Positions 5,461 through 55,480 of a stretch of DNA of 64,000 bases are shown here, one piece after another. The DNA is from Sipunculus nudus (lineage: Eukaryota; Annelida; Sipuncula; Golfingiida; Sipunculidae), in the NCBI GenBank assembly GCA_026874595.1, contig CM049308.1:17048001-17112000 (forward strand), in the 5' to 3' direction. A model generated the notes under the pieces. That model was not told the DNA's origin, made no database searches, and was given only the letters and a program-made list of their open reading frames with translations. The position numbers were made by a program, and so were the translations under genes. Each line of letters opens with the position of its first letter. Position 1 is the stretch's first letter.

Positions 5461-6725
5461 TGTACATGTACATTTGTCATAAAAATTAATTTTCATGAAT
5501 TTTCTATTTTTAGAAGCCGTAAAACAATCAAAAGTAGGTCAACCGGGACGAAACGCGAACTCCATCTGTAACTGGTCATTATCTGCATACACACCAAAAA
5601 TCAGGCCAATATCTGCAAGCATTGTGAAAAAAAGTCCGTACAGGTGTATTTGTCATGAAAATTTCTATTTTTCATGAAATTTTCTAAGTTAAGGAGCCAT
5701 AAAACGGTCAAAAGTAGTTCAACCTGGACAAAACGCAAACTCGATCTGTAACTGGTCATTATCTGCCCACACACCAAAAATAAGGCCAATATCTGCAGGC
5801 ATTGCGAAAAAAAGTCCGTACATGTGTATTTGTCATGAAAATTTCTATTTTTCATGAAATTTTCTAAGTTTAGGAGCCGTAAAACATTCAAAAGTAGGTC
5901 AACTGGGACGAAACGCGAACTCCATCTGTAACTGGTCATTATCTGCCCACACACCAAAAATAAGGCCAATATCTGCAGGCATTGCGAAAAAAAGTCCGTA
6001 CATGTGTATTTGTCATGAAAATTTCTATTTTTCATGAAATTTTCTAAGTTTAGGAGCCGTAAAACAGTCAAAAGTAGGTCAACCGGGACGAAACGGGAAC
6101 TCGATGTGTAACTGGTCATTATCTGCCCACACACCAAAAATCAGGCCAATATCTGCAGGCATTGCGAAAAAAAGTCCGTACAGGTGTATTTGTCATGAAA
6201 ATTTCTATTTTTCATGAAATTTTCTAAGTTAAGGAGCCATAAAACGGTCAAAAGTAGTTCAACCTGGACGAAACGCAAACTCGATCTGTAACTGGTCATT
6301 ATCTGCCCACACACCAAAAATCAGGCCAATATCTGCAGGCATTGCGAAAAAAAGTCTGTACATGTGTATTTGTCATGAAAATTTCTATTTTTCATGAAAT
6401 TTTCTAAGTTTAGGAGCCGTAAAACAGTCAAAAGTAGGTCAACTGGGACGAAACGCAAACTCGATCTGTAACTGGTCATTATCTGCCCACACACCAAAAA
6501 TAAGGCCAATATCTGCAGGCATTGCGAAAAAAAGTCCGTACATGTGTATTTGTCATGAAAATTTCTATTTTTCATGAAATTTTCTAAGTTTAGGAGCCGT
6601 AAAACAGTCAAAAGTAGGTCAACCGGGACGAAACGCGAACTCGATGTGTAACTGGTCATTATCTGCCCACACACCAAAAATCAGGCCAATATCTGCAGGC
6701 ATTGCGAAAAAAAGTCCGTACAACT
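5461..6725. repeat. 180-bp satellite, 7 monomers with 540-bp higher-order structure
   Basis: The motif AAAACxxTCAAAAGTAG recurs at exactly 5521, 5701, 5881, 6061, 6241, 6421 and 6601, a rigid 180-bp period without indels. Diagnostic variants repeat every third unit: units at 5701 and 6241 share AGGAGCCATAAAACGG and AGTAGTTCAACCTGG; units at 6061 and 6601 share CGATGTGTAACTGG; units at 5881 and 6421 share AACTGGGACG. The array is therefore a trimer (540 bp) copied about twice. Because 180 is divisible by three, the minus strand stays open for up to 178 codons; this is a by-product of the period, not evidence for a protein. Confidence 0.9.
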
Positions 6726-9430: not shown

Positions 9431-11355
9431 ATCATACTATAAAGGTTTAAATAACATGGCATTTTAGTTTTGCATTTGCTCAACAGATGTCAGCACCTGC
9501 TGGTCTATATGGAGGGCACTAGCTGATGTTGATATGATATGCTTATACTGTAAATGCAGTTATATTTTGCCGTTTTTGGAAACTTCAAAAGTTTGTCCCT
9601 GAAAAAATGGCAGCACGGAGGGCCGTCTGACAGCAGATGATGTTGTGTCAATGATCTGTGACCAACAGTGGGATCTCTCTGATGAATACAGCAGTGAAGA
9701 TGATGAAAATGATGCTACAGGCCCTGCAGCATATATAAAAGCTTCTTTATGCCCTCAGATCAGACAGGTGGGTGGTCAGAATTCGAACTTTGATCCTGTC
9801 AATACCGACATAAGTGGTGCCGTTTCTGATTCCTTGTCTGATGAGCCACTTAAAAGTTCCAGCTATGCCTCTGTAACTTGCCCCTCCATTAGGAACAATA
9901 GCCCATCTCTCGATAGTTCTGACGAAAATTGTGATAGTGTCATTATTAGTGGTAGTGGGTCGATTCAAAGTGACCAGGTGTCACGTGGTCATCCAGCTAC
10001 AAGGGGGCATGGCACTGACAGAGCCAGGCATCGTGGGCGTGGGCTTGGCAGGCAAACCAGAACAGTTCAGCAGACTGGGCCAGACTATGAGAGTCTTGCA
10101 AATATTGACCCTGATGCCTGGAGAAAAGATATGACCCTGCAGATCATATTATCAGGGGATACAGAAATAAGCCAGGACCCACAAAGCATATGACTCAGGA
10201 TGAAGTGAAAATGCTAAGGCGGTAGATTTTTTCAAACTGTTCTTCAACCATAATGTCATGCAACATGTTCAGGAGCAAACCAATCTGTATGCTCAACAGC
10301 AAAGAACAGCAAATCCAAATAAACACAAGTCAGAGTGGCATGAGCTGGAGGATGGTGAGCTTGAAGCTTTCCTTGGGGTTTGCATCCTGATGGACATCAT
10401 GAGGTTGCCAAAATATAAAATATATTGGGCCAAACAGTGTTTCCATTGAAGTCTCCCCTTGCTCATATAATACCAAGAAACAGGTTTTGCCAGATTCTGC
10501 GTTATCTGCACCTAGCAAATGATGCTGATACTAACCAGAATGATAAACTTAGAAAAGTTAGACCCTTTCTTGATCTGATAACTCCTGCCTTTGAGGCAGA
10601 ATATGTGATGGAACGTGAGACAACCATTGGCGAGGCAATGATTCCATTCAAAGGCAGGTTGAACTTTAAACAGTACATGAAGGCCAAGCCCGCGAAATGG
10701 GGAATCAAAGCCTGGTGCCTCAATGAGGCTAGCACTGGATATGGCTGGAGAATGCAAATCTACACTGGAGCAGGGGTTGATGCCCAACCAGAAAAGAACC
10801 AAGCCACACAGGTAGTCTTTGACCTTATGCATGGACTTGATGGCAAAGGCTACCACTTGTATACAGATAATTTGTACACAAGTCCTGTTCTTGCATCAAT
10901 ACTGTACAAGAATCAGATATATATCTGTGGGACAGTTAGAGCAGTTCCTGCACCAAGAAGATTTTTCCCTCAAGAACTTGTTTTGACAAAACGCCAAATT
11001 CGGGCTACTGAACGTGGAGATTATGATTGGAAAATGAATGGATCAATGTTGGCCATGTGATGGATGGACAAAAAGCCAGTATATCTTTTGTCCACCATAC
11101 ACCCCCCATTCCTGAATAATGGTGAGTTACCATCTGTGAGAAGATATGCCAGGGATGGCACAGAAAGGCAAGTGTCATGTCCTCCTGCAGAAGTTGATTA
11201 TGTAACATTCATGAGGGGCGTCGACAGAGCTGATCCAAAGATTCAGCTGTACAACTGTGGGAGAAAAAGTGTAAAGTGGTGGAAAATGGTGTTCTACCAT
11301 GTTATTGAAGTTGCATGTAACAATGCCCACATCATTGAATCTAAGCACAGGGCCA
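9391..11355 (+). mobile_element. piggyBac-family transposon, transposase broken, right end missing
   Basis: DNA transposon of the piggyBac superfamily, which cuts and pastes at TTAA using a DDD transposase. The N-terminus may start at the ATG at 9607, with an early frameshift into LTADDVVSMICDQQWDLSDE and an acidic tail (SSEDDEND). The transposase core runs through three frames: VDFFKLFFNHNVMQHV and LEAFLGVCILMDIMRLPKYK (10215-10440), then PRNRFCQILRYLHLAND, the MIPFKGRLNFKQYMKAKPAK block, KGYHLYTDNLYTSPVLASIL and, after an in-frame TGA at 11058, YVTFMRGVDRADPKIQLYN. Catalytic Asp 2 (YTDN) and Asp 3 (GVDRAD) are present. The first catalytic position reads GEAMIPF where the family has DEAMIPF or DESM, so Asp is Gly here (codon GGC). 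The cysteine-rich C-terminus and right inverted repeat are absent. Confidence 0.88.
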
Positions 11356-11699
11356 AATATAGACTCAAGGTCTATTCTACAGTTCAAAATCATAAACTCC
11401 AAACCCAATGGGCCTTGCCCAATTTCTTTACTGTCAAAATTTTCACATATCTGACTACCTGGCCCCCTGTTCGGTTCACCCTCAGGACACCCGATATCTC
11501 TTTCCCAATTTAACTCTCAGTTAACTCGCGATCTACTATTCTGTAATCTCGATACAAGTAAATTTAAGGGCCACAGTTTCAGAATTGGTGCTGCAACTGA
11601 AGCGGCAGCTCAGGGCAAAACAGATGCCCCAATACGCAATATCGGCCATTGGAAATCAAATGCATTTCATAAGTATATAAGATTGCACCTATCCCATTA
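11356..11699 (+). pseudogene. DIRS tyrosine recombinase, C-terminal catalytic part
   Basis: Downstream of the piggyBac remnant the recombinase resumes. Pieces in one frame (FFTVKIFTYLTTW) shift near 11460 into LPGPLFGSPSGHPISLSQFN, then run to the natural end through GHSFRIGAATEAAAQGK, APIRNIGHWKSNAFHKYIRL and a stop at 11697-11699. His-x-x-Arg (HSFR), the His/Trp of GHW and the nucleophilic Tyr (HKY) are all visible. This enzyme integrates circular DIRS DNA without an integrase. The exact junction with piggyBac sequence is uncertain by about 30 bp. Confidence 0.8.
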
Positions 11700-12745
11700 A
11701 GACTATCATTAGGTGAACAAGTGTTGAAAGAGTGTCATGATCAGTATGGACACCAGGGTGCTGACAGAATAGAGTTGCTCATTAGAGAGAATTTTTTCTG
11801 GCCAAAAATGCACCAAGGGATTGGACACTATGTAGACCAGTTTTAGAGGTGTGTACTGAGTTAACCAGTAAAATACAAGTGTTCACTTGGAAGCCTTTAA
11901 GCCTCCAAATCATTACAGGTAGTTGCCATGGATTTCACTCGGTTGGAAAAATCTTCCAGTGGGTATGAAAATGTATTAGTCCTTACAGACATCTTTACCA
12001 AATATGCTATTGCTATTCCAACAAGAGATCAGAAAGCAATAACTGTGGCAAGAGTGTTAGTCAACCACTGGTTAAGGAGGCTTGGTCCCCCTCAAAGACT
12101 ACATAGGGACCAAAAAAGAGACTTTGAAGCAATGGTTAGGAAGGATTTGTGTGACCTATGTGGTGTCAAGAAAACTTGTACGACAACATACAGGCCACAG
12201 GGGAATGGCCAGTGCAAAAGATTTAATAGAACTTTGCATAATTTACCGAGGTCTTTACCACCTGAAAAGAAAAGAAAATGGACGGAGTACACTGAAGAAT
12301 TTGTATTCTTCTACAATACCACTCCCCATTGGTCTACTGGATTCTCTCCATTCTTCCTGATGTATGGAAGGAAAGCTCAGTTTCAACAGCCTTGTCCAAG
12401 ATGATTTATTGAATCAATAAGCAACATCAACACAAGAAAAGAATATATCTGATTGAGTTGTGAAGCATCAAGAAAAACTGAAAGATGTTTATCTAATAGA
12501 TAAAGATGCAAAGATGCGCAAGGCATATTATGATCAAACTGCAATAGACCAGCATTTGGCAGTTGGCATGGAAGTTTTTAAACAACACCATAGTCAGAAA
12601 GGAAGGAATAAGTTCCAGGATGCATATTCCCCTGACTGATACACCATACTGTCTTGCAATCATAAACAAAATATTTATTTAATTGAACCTTGGAATGGGG
12701 TTGGGAAAGCAAAGTGGGTAAATAGATATGAAACTAGACATTTCA
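11700..12745 (+). pseudogene. Ty3/Gypsy-type integrase fragment (decayed)
   Basis: Starts with the zinc-binding H2C2 region (LKECHDQYGHQGADRIELL, FFWPKMHQGIGHYVDQ); the final cysteine pair is damaged by a stop. The core domain is open at 11928-12404: VAMDFTRLEKSSSGYENVLV holds the first Asp, LHRDQKRDFE the second, and TYRPQGNGQCKRFNRTLHNL has Lys where the catalytic Glu belongs (CERFNRTL in the family). After a stop, C-terminal sequence is still readable: KGRNKFQDAYSPD, then NIYLIEPWNGVGKAKWVNRY ending near 12745. No LTR, protease or RT was found next to it, so it is an isolated 3' pol fragment. Confidence 0.85.
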
Positions 12746-51697: not shown

Positions 51698-52136
51698 AAG
51701 CTACCATGTATGGTCTGGCCTACGATAAATAATGTTTATAACGTAAGCAAACGGTGGCGAAGGAGAGCCACGAGAGCAGGGCCGTAAGCTTCGTTTGGGG
51801 GAGGGGGGTTGGTATATTGTAAAATTATTAGAAACTCTAAGGGAAAAGCGTAAAAATATGTGAACTAAATTGTTTCTTTCTTAGGAATATGCCCGAAGAC
51901 AAAACATGCTTTATAATGTCAATGTTTTTGCGTTTCGTGAAATTATATTTCATAATCAGAGCTTATTTGTTTTGCACATCGCACAGTTTTGTTTCAACAG
52001 TATTTTATTAAATTTGAACAAATTACATTGATTCAGATAGAATACCAATTTTTAAAAAAAAATATACAATATAGCTGTCTGTAGCTTAATGAACAACTCG
52101 AGGTGCATGGCTGAACAAATAGTTTGCATTTAACCA

Positions 52137-52138
<2 letters not shown>

Positions 52139-52190
<52 letters not shown>
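52139..52190. repeat. (TA)n microsatellite, left of the ribozyme
   Basis: About 25 TA units, preceded by CCATGCA; mirrored by (TA)n and TGCATGG at 52310-52370. Confidence 0.9.
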
Positions 52191-52192
<2 letters not shown>

Positions 52193-52227
52193 TGTTCTTT
52201 CTATAGGCTGTTGGCAACCCCTTCATT

Positions 52228-52282
52228 CATTTCGTTCTGAAGAGTGCCGTACAACGGTACGAAACTGATTAGTAAACACGTG
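52228..52282 (+). ncRNA. type I hammerhead ribozyme, minimal form
   Basis: Contains every conserved core element. CTGAAGA is at 52237-52243. Stem II pairs 52244-52250 (GTGCCGT) with 52254-52260 (ACGGTAC), seven pairs including one G-U, with loop ACA. GAAA is at 52261-52264. Stem III is three pairs, ACT (52264-52266) with AGT (52271-52273), loop GATT. The cleavage triplet is GTA at 52272-52274. Stem I pairs GTT (52234-52236) with AAC (52275-52277) and, beyond an internal loop, CAT (52228-52230) with GTG (52280-52282). A short stem III is the hallmark of hammerheads in Penelope-like retroelements and animal retrozymes. No Penelope coding sequence is nearby, so this is probably a truncated or non-autonomous copy. 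Confidence 0.8.
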
Positions 52283-52308
52283 CTCACAATCGTTTGATTC
52301 CTTACACA

Positions 52309-52309
<1 letters not shown>

Positions 52310-52355
<46 letters not shown>

Positions 52356-52368
52356 TATATATATGCAT
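52310..52368. repeat. (TA)n microsatellite, right of the ribozyme
   Basis: About 27 TA units with one AAA interruption, ending in TGCATGG, the mirror of the left microsatellite border. Confidence 0.9.
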
Positions 52369-53690
52369 GGTCGAAGAGTTGAAGAGTGAAAACCGCTGCG
52401 ATATAGGCCTATTATTTTCCTTAAACAATGTCATGAGCAGATAAGAAATTTAACCCTAAAAAAGGCATGTAAGTTCCTGCGAATGCTATATTAAACTCTC
52501 TTAATGTCTTAAGCCCAACGCCTTACAAGTTTAAAGTCACCTAAAAGTTTAAATATTGTTGACAGACAGATTTAAGTATAGCCGGTTGGGGTATAGTGGT
52601 GGTGGTGGTGAAAATATGTCCCTGTTGTCGGGGTGATTATCAGGCGGAGTTTTACTGTTTTGCACGTGCACAGTAACAACCGCCTGTACACACATACAAA
52701 ATGACCATCCAATATAACATGATAACTCTTTCCTGTCATATCCTTTGATGCTTTGCCAGGAGGAAACGTAAAGACCTAGGGGGGCCACGTTTGATGTCTG
52801 CTGATAATTTTAATTGTGCATAAAAAGTCTCTGCAGGGGGCATTTTCGGCTTGCCAAGACATCATGTTTAATTCCCTTCCCTATAAACTTAGTCCACTTA
52901 TCTCACTCACAGTTGTGATTACAAGCGTAGGCGAATACGTTTAATATGTTCCCTCCAATATGTCACACACATCCGTTAATTCGTAGTTATTCTCACACGA
53001 TTTACTCATATTATTGACATCTACCTAAATTCCTTATGTAAATAACATATGGCGCCCGTGTCGTATAAGGCTCACGTCTCGGAAAAACATTCATAATGAC
53101 AGAACTACATGGTAACATGTAAATGAAAACAAACAAAACAAATTACCAGCAAAATAAGATTAATTTCATTTACATGCATAATTTATTGTTCTTGTGACGC
53201 AGGGCTTGGTTTGCCTACAGCGTACTTTAAAACGGGCATAATATATCACACTAGTTGATATATTCGGTAAAACCGTTCTTTTTTTTTTTTTTTTTTGCTG
53301 TGAGGCACTTATTAAATGAGATGAGGAATGTCGGCACATTTTTAGTTCTGTAAGTTAAAATAAAATATAGATTTTCAGTTGGATACTGTCTCAATAAGAT
53401 ATATGTTCAAATATTTTTACAGATATTTTGTGGCACTGTGCTTGTGGCAAGAAATTCATACATCAGTGTGTTTACCTTGAAGAGCTGATCATTGAAGATA
53501 TTTACATTTGCGAACCGGAATGGGACGCGGGGCCATTCAGATTCTCGAAGATCTTTTGACTGTTTACACATATTATTATTGTTAAACTTATTACGGATAG
53601 ATTGTTGAAGATATGAAAGATGATTTAAAAGTGTTCTTTTCAGGTATGAAAGCTAGGAAGAAACGGTAATATGCATACTTCGTTAGTAGC
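52369..53690. other. no supported gene
   Basis: Mixed sequence with a GGTGGT run near 52600 and a T-run at 53278. No recognised product. Confidence 0.45.
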
Positions 53691-53737: not shown

Positions 53738-55480
53738 ATGTGGAGCGCTCTTAAAAAAGTATTACCTGGTTCCTCATCAGCTAAACCTGTAGATTGCGAT
53801 ATATCATGTGAAGAGTTTAATGAGTATTTCAGTACCATAGGTGATATATTAGCGGTAAATTTTAAGGCATCCGAAACCCGCCCTGTTCGGTCGTTGAATA
53901 TTACAGAGTCCCGTTTCAAATTTTCTATATTACTATCGCAGGATATACAGAAAGATTTACTTGCACTTCCACCTAAACACACTCTGGATATAATCGATAT
54001 GGACATCACATTACTCCAAATGGCTTCGCAGCTCATTAGTCCTATGTTATGTTATCTATTTAATCTATCACTATATAACGCCACGTACCCGCTTGACTGG
54101 AAAACAGCTCGAATTACTCCAGTATATAAAGGAAAAGGCGATAAAGCAAATAAGAGTAATTACAGACCCATATCAATAATACCTCACGTTGCGAAACTAT
54201 TTGAAAAAGCTGTACAAAGGCAACTAATTAGGTTTATCACAAATAGCAATAGAATTTCAGAAAGTCAGCACGCATATCTGCCCGGAAAATCTACTGTAAC
54301 GGCTCTTAGTAAATTTTCAAATGACGTATATAAAACTATGGATCAGGGTAAAGTTACTGCTGCTTGTTTTTTCGACCTAACCAAAGGATTTGATACCATA
54401 AATCATAAAAGATTATTGGAAAAGTTGTTCGTTTTTGGTTTTGATAAGAAAACAGTTGCCTGGTTTCAATCTTACCTCCATGATCGCCTACAGATCGTAA
54501 AATACAACAACAATCTATCCAATGCTGCTGTTGTTAATGTAGGTGTTCCTCAGGGTACAGTTCTCGGCCCTATTCTATTTTTGATATACATAAATGATTT
54601 TCCAAATATGCTAAATACTGATGGTATTGTAATGTACGCTGATGATGTCACTGTATATTGCCATGGTAATAATGCTGTAGAAGCTGAGATTAAATTACAG
54701 CGAGTAGTAAATCATGTGACCACCTGGTACGACGAAAACCTGCTCACTCTGAATTATAATAAATCTAATGTTATGCTACTTGGAAATCTTCATAGAATCG
54801 CTGATCACAAACTCAAGAAATCAATATTAGATACAACATTACTTTGTTCTAATAAGATTAATCTACTTGGCGTTATAATAGATGCTAATTTATCCTGGAA
54901 ACCACATGTTCACTCTCTATCCAAAAAACTATCCCAAAAGATAGGAGTTCTTTACCGAATATCAAGCTATCTGTCTATGCAATCTCTTACTAAGGTTTAT
55001 GCAACTATAATTCAGCCTCATATTGACTATGCCCTAAGCATTTGGGGTTGTTCATTATTGTCTACCAATGATATGGTACAGAAAATACAAAACAGAGCTG
55101 CCCGCATTATATCCAAAAACTATAACAGAAATGTTGATTCTATAACCATAGTAAATGAACTGGGTTGGTTGAATATACGTCAACGCTATATGTATTCTGT
55201 TGCAGTACTTATGTATAAATGTGTTTGTTCAATAGCTCCCGGTTTACAAGAGAATAATTTTCACTTTGTCAATGAAGCTCACAATCATCAAACCCGAGCT
55301 GCTGTGAGCAATGATTTAGTCGTTCCTAAACCTAGAACAAACTATCTGAAAAAATCTTTACTATATATGGGGCCAAAAGTATGGAATAGTTTATCCAATG
55401 AATCTAAGTCAGCCATAACTTGTGCATCTTTTAAGAAACGAATCAAATTGGAAATTTTAGCAACTGTATGTTCTATATGA
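53738..55480 (+). CDS. LINE reverse transcriptase, 580 codons, uninterrupted, 5'-truncated element
   Basis: Reverse transcriptase of a non-LTR retrotransposon, Jockey/CR1-like in layout. From residue about 120: WKTARITPVYKGKGDKANKS, NYRPISIIPHVAKLFEKAVQ, SQHAYLPGKSTVTAL, FFDLTKGFDTINHKRLLEKL (first catalytic Asp), GVPQGTVLGPILFLIYINDF and VMYADDVTVY (catalytic YADD). Thumb and C-terminal parts follow: LGVIIDANLSWKPHV, YATIIQPHIDYALSIWGCSL, LQKIQNRAARII-like sequence, LPKPRTNY-like VPKPRTNYLKKSLLYMGPKV, WNSL and a stop at 55478. No apurinic endonuclease domain precedes it; the first Met may not be the true start, since the element is probably truncated near 53700. The intact frame suggests recent activity or recent arrival. 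Confidence 0.92.
   Translation: MWSALKKVLPGSSSAKPVDCDISCEEFNEYFSTIGDILAVNFKASETRPVRSLNITESRFKFSILLSQDIQKDLLALPPKHTLDIIDMDITLLQMASQLISPMLCYLFNLSLYNATYPLDWKTARITPVYKGKGDKANKSNYRPISIIPHVAKLFEKAVQRQLIRFITNSNRISESQHAYLPGKSTVTALSKFSNDVYKTMDQGKVTAACFFDLTKGFDTINHKRLLEKLFVFGFDKKTVAWFQSYLHDRLQIVKYNNNLSNAAVVNVGVPQGTVLGPILFLIYINDFPNMLNTDGIVMYADDVTVYCHGNNAVEAEIKLQRVVNHVTTWYDENLLTLNYNKSNVMLLGNLHRIADHKLKKSILDTTLLCSNKINLLGVIIDANLSWKPHVHSLSKKLSQKIGVLYRISSYLSMQSLTKVYATIIQPHIDYALSIWGCSLLSTNDMVQKIQNRAARIISKNYNRNVDSITIVNELGWLNIRQRYMYSVAVLMYKCVCSIAPGLQENNFHFVNEAHNHQTRAAVSNDLVVPKPRTNYLKKSLLYMGPKVWNSLSNESKSAITCASFKKRIKLEILATVCSI

What the first reader, a model, noticed from the sequence alone, without database searches (positions are those of the whole stretch)
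52228..52282. Complete minimal hammerhead ribozyme between two (TA)n tracts
CTGAAGA, a 7-bp stem II with a 3-nt loop, GAAA, a 3-bp stem III with loop GATT, and a GTA cleavage triplet are all present in the right order, with stem I closing on both sides of an internal loop. Chance agreement of core plus stem II is very unlikely. Short stem III is known from Penelope-like elements and retrozymes; here no Penelope ORF accompanies it, and the unit sits between mirrored (TA)n and CCATGCA borders, which may be a small non-autonomous form.
Basis: partly seen in the sequence, partly recalled or inferred. Interest (0 to 1): 0.85.

Follow-up and report, generated by a model that had tools for sequence, protein, structure and literature searches.

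The report
Relic of Penelope retroelement's hammerhead ribozyme
The sequence does spell a small self-cleaving hammerhead RNA, but it is the leftover tip of a known kind of jumping gene (a Penelope-like element) that landed in a TA repeat as two head-to-head scraps, so it is a lone and probably weak copy of something already described.

Summary
Rfam misses it. A covariance model built only from hammerheads of other retroelement families of the same genome finds it as the only significant hit in the window (28.1 bits, E 2.2e-5; next E 0.53). On the model-made alignment 8 of 13 base pairs change on both sides.

It is not a new small mobile unit. 42 other places match it in a capped genome search. 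At several, the motif lies behind frames with reverse-transcriptase and GIY-YIG-like motifs in ~2.4-kb head-to-tail units: a Penelope-like element (PLE).

The window copy looks like a one-off, doubly truncated head-to-head insertion in a (TA)n tract. Its left scrap (52182-52217, reversed) is the end of the PLE tail; its right scrap (52215-52318) is the ribozyme-bearing pLTR end. The junction occurs once in the genome. The CCATGCA 'borders' lie outside the homology to other copies.

Stem III is self-complementary, which fits published dimer cleavage of PLE hammerheads. This solitary copy has private changes in stem I and is probably weak alone. Ordinary: a new member of a known kind.

The parts
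52140..52188 (.). Left (TA)n tract, most likely the insertion site
   Evidence: TA tracts also lie beside most other copies looked at
52182..52217 (-). Left arm: reverse complement of the PLE tail end (positions 1650-1683 of the L024 reverse complement, 91.7% identical; its outer bases run into the TA tract)
52215..52217 (.). CAA shared by both arms: head-to-head junction; a 21-nt junction pattern occurs once in the genome at up to 2 mismatches
52215..52318 (+). Right arm: PLE pLTR end with the hammerhead (positions 1501-1605 of the same reference, 95.2% identical; 98% to the closest copies over query 27-123), truncated at its 5' side
52228..52282 (+). Type I hammerhead motif, minimal PLE kind
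   Evidence: R1, circular: 81.9 bits; R2, non-circular: 28.1 bits, E 2.2e-5, matched 52228-52285
52228..52236 (+). Stem I 5' side (CAT outer, GTT inner); the T at 52231 is not seen in the 9 other rows of alignment A2
52237..52243 (+). Core CTGAAGA (17 of 34 places read have this form, 16 CTGATGA, 1 CTGTAGA)
52244..52260 (+). Stem II, 7 bp, loop ACA
52261..52264 (+). Core GAAA
52264..52273 (+). Stem III segment ACTGATTAGT: 3-bp hairpin, or a 10-bp self-duplex (G-U counted) between two molecules
52272..52274 (+). GTA cleavage triplet; predicted cut after 52274
52275..52282 (+). Stem I 3' side; one nucleotide missing here relative to the 9 other rows of alignment A2
52311..52364 (.). Right (TA)n tract, most likely the insertion site

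Best explanation
A dead, doubly 5'-truncated, head-to-head insertion of a Penelope-like retrotransposon into a (TA)n microsatellite, which keeps the hammerhead of the element's pLTR. Likely working in intact relatives (partly inferred): a tandem array is transcribed; neighbouring hammerheads pair through their self-complementary stem III segments and cut the RNA after the GUA as a double hammerhead; the element's RT/endonuclease cuts AT-rich DNA on both strands and starts copying at either of two RNA sites (here reference 1605 and about 1680, the ends of pLTR and tail); two short cDNAs are joined end to end. Shown here: motif, family, covariation, end points, junction. Inferred: cleavage, dimer action, twin priming. 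The window copy has one motif, no ORF and private changes in stem I, so it is probably inactive or weak alone.
For: 43 matches in the own genome, 42 besides the window, 40 of 310 candidates scored. Units ~2.4 kb apart carry frames with FDVVDFY, YRDD and IYQA..YIG. 107 RT matches, 106 of 1142 candidates scored. A hammerhead behind the ORF in 18 of 20 stretches fetched downstream of RTs of 48-78% identity by core pattern, plus L043 weakly (19.6 bits, E 0.014). R2 finds the window without training on it. 8 of 13 pairs change on both sides; 96.6% of cells paired against 21.5-51.9% when slid. The left arm is the reversed tail end. Of 14 head-to-head pairs with both outer ends in view, 11 end once at 1605 and once at 1675-1683; L004, L011 and L022 do not (read by eye). 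In print: PLE hammerheads in pLTRs that may cleave as dimers (PMC7761336, passages), head-to-head inverted pLTRs with an optional tail on one (PMC3846280, passages), AT-rich both-strand cutting and two RT start sites (PMC11167929, main text).
Against: Pfam and NCBIfam do not name RT or GIY-YIG in the family's own frames; PDB sequence searches find nothing relevant. The best RT hits are in sister family F and below cut-off: a retron RT at E 0.0048 and RVT_1 at E 0.01. So the PLE naming rests on recalled motifs plus architecture. L045, 1 of 20, shows no hammerhead. A5 was fitted to the model's structure; two of its five measures are not extreme against shuffles (pairs with a change on both sides: 12 of 500; further pair types: 66 of 500). 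A later deletion within a longer inverted pair would leave the same sequence as an original short insertion.
Confidence: 0.92

Rival explanations
1. A small non-autonomous element or animal retrozyme (~240 bp) that spreads by itself.
For: Compact, between mirrored TA tracts; animal retrozymes with circular RNAs of ~170-400 nt and type I hammerheads exist (PMC7229834, passages).
Against: Junction found once in the genome; none of the 42 other listed matches extends into query positions 1-26 (capped list); flanks essentially single copy; the window holds one significant motif only.
Confidence: 0.03
2. Chance or non-functional hammerhead look-alike.
For: No Rfam hit; folds no better than shuffles.
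Against: Changes on both sides of pairs in all three stems across PLE families; independent model hit; own stem I flanks pair 18 of 20 against a mean of 11.0 when swapped among 5 families, own arrangement best of 120 (with an automatic parse of family C 15 of 20, and 4 of 120 as good).
Confidence: 0.03
3. A host-recruited (exapted) ribozyme kept in a host transcript.
For: Core intact in this copy; hammerheads in rodent Clec2 3' UTRs and human introns are described (PMC6155905, figure legend).
Against: Both changes of this copy against the rows of A2 lie in stem I; of 8 window frames scanned, 5 match mobile-element domains and 3 match nothing. Transcription was not tested.
Confidence: 0.02

Closest known systems
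Minimal type I hammerheads of Penelope-like elements (Cervera and de la Pena 2014; Lunse et al. 2017: neither held; seen only as cited in PMC7761336, PMC6155905, PMC10085705 and PMC11167929)
   Same: pLTR position, minimal type I core, very short stem III, tandem units, stem III able to pair between two copies
   Different: This copy has lost the ORF and any second pLTR copy in line with it, and stands alone
Penelope families of the rotifer Adineta vaga (PMC3846280, passages)
   Same: Direct and head-to-head inverted pLTRs; an optional tail on one of the inverted pLTRs
   Different: Tail about 78 nt here against 31 bp there; window arms reduced to 36 and 104 bp; that paper proposes self-priming on an antisense template
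Poseidon PAc of Anolis (PMC11167929, main text)
   Same: pLTR hammerhead, AT-rich targets, two RT start sites that bound the tail
   Different: In PAc no start-site difference between strands was seen in vitro; here paired arms use one site each in 11 of 14 pairs
Animal non-LTR retrozymes (PMC7229834, passages)
   Same: Type I hammerhead in a small non-coding stretch
   Different: No short tandem unit and no second copy of this arrangement found

Membership tests
Type I hammerhead ribozyme | CUGANGA, GAAA, NUH core in order with three stems, ends in stem I | tested here: met
Type I hammerhead ribozyme | Match to an Rfam hammerhead model | tested here: not met
   Rfam scores a sister copy at 17.2 bits against 48.5, so I read this as a limit of those models for short stem III, not as a defining test
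Type I hammerhead ribozyme | Self-cleavage after H17 | not testable with these tools
   needs in vitro transcription
Penelope-like element | ORF with RT and GIY-YIG endonuclease in full-length relatives | tested here: inconclusive
   recalled motifs present and conserved; Pfam/NCBIfam/PDB give no confident domain
Penelope-like element | Tandem or partial-tandem units with pLTRs, inverted partial copies, tail | tested here: met
Penelope-like element | ORF present in the window copy | tested here: not met
   tblastn of two family frames finds nothing below E 1 in the window: the window copy is a fragment of a PLE, not a PLE
Non-LTR retrozyme | Short tandem or repeated units with a canonical type I hammerhead | tested here: not met

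The most novel reading that the evidence does not exclude
Head-to-head PLE pairs such as this one are single twin-primed insertions: each nicked target strand starts copying the RNA at a different one of the two start sites (1605 and ~1680), and the two truncated cDNAs are end-joined. The window, with both start sites and the join within about 140 bp, is a minimal natural record of that reaction, and such events would explain some 'dispersed' minimal hammerheads of animal genomes. (Lowered from 0.45 in the draft: on recheck, L022 is a third exception.)
Probability: 0.42. Interest if true: 0.4.

Novelty: new member of a known kind. Interest (0 to 1): 0.25.

Why it matters
It explains an apparently orphan ribozyme as debris of a retroelement, and shows a hammerhead that Rfam misses but a model from the same genome finds. 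The start-site pattern in inverted pairs gives a testable point on how Penelope-like elements insert, whose later steps PMC11167929 calls not yet validated.

Tried and rejected
Rfam at gathering and at E<=10: no hammerhead in the window. RF00008 over the own genome: nothing, but the controls rang nowhere either, so it shows nothing. Single-molecule folding: uninformative. Pair counts within the window's own family: too uniform, no change on both sides. MAFFT alignment of 12 sequences of all families misaligned L048/L049, so pairs were counted on the model-made alignment A5. Other copies of the flanks, for an empty site: none useful. Domain naming by Pfam, NCBIfam and PDB: weak; weak hits to unrelated families (for example baeRF_family7, E 0.0056, below cut-off) were set aside. 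A small non-autonomous unit with CCATGCA borders and a retrozyme were rejected.

Full report
What is there. The window is C3:17048001-17112000 of an unnamed 1.43-Gb genome. Rfam reports no match in the window at gathering and no hammerhead at E<=10 around the motif. A sister copy reaches 17.2 bits for RF00008, against a gathering score of 48.5. Short stem III is the likely reason (inference).

Is it more than chance? A descriptor (core, stem II at least 4 bp, stem III, stem I at least 3 bp) hits the window once and 0 times in 7.68 Mb of Markov sequence, both strands counted; it was written after seeing the motif. Model R1 contains the window itself, so its 81.9 bits prove nothing. Model R2 was built from 8 hammerheads of other PLE families only (alignment A3). 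It finds 52228-52285 with 28.1 bits, E 2.2e-5; the next of 14 matches has E 0.53. The E-values are rough because calibration was short.

Family. The 123-nt stretch has 43 matches in the genome, with 40 of 310 candidates scored, so this is a lower bound. The 42 other matches all start at query position 27 or later. I read 34 distinct places, the window included. The core is intact in 32; the two others have CAAAAC for CGAAAC and CTGTAGA for CTGANGA. Inner stem I GTT/AAC is kept in 31 of 34 and outer CAT/ATG in 28 of 34, the window not among the latter. Several copies lie about 2.4 kb apart in the same direction. Frames in these units contain FDVVDFYPSI, YRDDGLG and VIYQATV...YIG, which I recognise from memory as Penelope-type RT and GIY-YIG endonuclease motifs. 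Pfam, NCBIfam and PDB sequence searches do not name these domains with confidence; the best are a retron RT at E 0.0048 and RVT_1 at E 0.01, both in sister family F and below cut-off. Five endonuclease-part frames align with conserved cysteines, Y, YIG, R, H and others.

Other families. The RT frame finds 107 matches, 48-100% identical, 106 of 1142 candidates scored. I fetched 20 stretches downstream of RTs of 48-78% identity. By core pattern behind the ORF, 18 of 20 have a hammerhead. R1 finds 11 matches at E<=1. R2 finds 19 of the 20 at E<=0.1, but 8 of these were its training rows; the weakest is L043 at E 0.014, and L045 has none. On A5 (30 matches from 28 sources given, 20 distinct rows) 96.6% of cells pair, against 21.5-51.9% when slid; 8 of 13 pairs have changes on both sides, 4, 3 and 1 in helices I, II and III. 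Against 500 shuffles, cells paired, cells with a change on both sides and covariation score are reached by 0, pairs with a change on both sides by 12, further pair types by 66. A5 was fitted to the model, so these counts lean in its favour. Own stem I flanks pair 18 of 20 for five families and the own arrangement is the best of 120; an earlier automatic parse of family C gave 15 of 20 with 4 of 120 as good.

What the window copy is. Positions 52182-52217 are the reverse complement of the PLE tail end; 52215-52318 are the pLTR end with the ribozyme; both share CAA. The junction was found once in the genome. Other loci show the same head-to-head layout with longer arms, mostly with TA tracts outside. 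Reading by eye over 30 loci, with three overlapping locus pairs merged: 14 head-to-head pairs have both outer ends in view. 11 of them (L001, L005, L010, L012, L013, L016, L023, L026, L027, L029, L030) end once at reference 1605 and once at 1675-1683; L004, L011 and L022 do not. L014 and L021 could not be judged. In the 11, the inner breakpoints of the two arms differ by 24 to 305 reference positions, and the arms overlap by up to 11 nt or are up to 5 nt apart; L012 and L023 have an extra rearrangement, and L016 and L030 (28 and 24 positions) would also fit a small fold-back loop. On the whole this fits two truncated cDNAs joined end to end better than a palindrome (inference). PMC3846280 (passages) prefers self-priming on an antisense template; PMC11167929 saw no start-site difference between strands in vitro, which speaks against a fixed strand for each start site.

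How it would work. [quoted passage not shown] Here the stem III segment is self-complementary over all 10 nt in window/A, B, C and one E family, G-U counted, 8 of 10 in the other E and 8 of 9 in F. Predicted dimer energies are lower than two monomers, for the window -29.4 against 2 x -10.6 and for C -26.9 against 2 x -8.9 kcal/mol, with the extended stem III; for A and F the predicted dimer is a long self-duplex, not a double hammerhead. PMC11167929 (main text) shows AT-rich cutting, extension of both strands, two RT start sites that bound the tail, and a hammerhead that cleaved only with protein and was dispensable for insertion in vitro. The window copy has one motif and no partner in the window, and its two changes against the other rows of A2 lie in stem I. 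I expect little or no activity alone.

Novelty. PLE hammerheads, head-to-head pLTRs and the tail are in print (PMC7761336, PMC3846280, PMC11167929). I did not find in print the reading of inverted PLE pairs as twin-primed events with one start site per arm. The searches were 'Penelope' with 'twin priming' (3 papers, listing only, one mention of Penelope each) and 'Penelope-like element' with 'inverted' and 'pLTR' (6 papers, of which I opened 2); the library holds open-licence papers only.

Noticed in passing
G000 C17:42737906-42864745 (sample L048): Another PLE family forms a head-to-tail array: 25 listed RT matches whose spacings are close to whole multiples of 2,924 bp, spanning 43 periods; 11 of 25 have a partner 38.03 kb (13 units) further on. 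The one stretch sampled has its own hammerhead. A Penelope element turned satellite, or an assembly effect.
   Followed up: partly
L013 122-141 and 1746-1765 (C17:7.728 Mb); window 52133-52140 and 52364-52371: Outside its (TA)n tracts the L013 inverted pair is flanked by a 20-bp inverted repeat (19 of 20 by eye; 10 nt exact by script), and the window pair by ACCATGCA/TGCATGGT; 2 of the 11 pairs looked at. Possibly an inverted duplication of the target flank during insertion; unexplained.
   Followed up: partly
window 53738-55480 +: 580-aa frame with a reverse transcriptase domain (RVT_1, E 1e-38), nearest solved relatives R2 and LINE-1 ORF2 type, 1.4 kb downstream of the ribozyme.
   Followed up: no
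window 10425-12404 +: Frames with a DDE_Tnp_1_7 transposase domain (10425-11513, in two pieces) and an integrase core domain rve (11928-12404).
   Followed up: no
window 5462-6722: Tandem array of a 180-bp unit, 7 copies, 93% matches.
   Followed up: no
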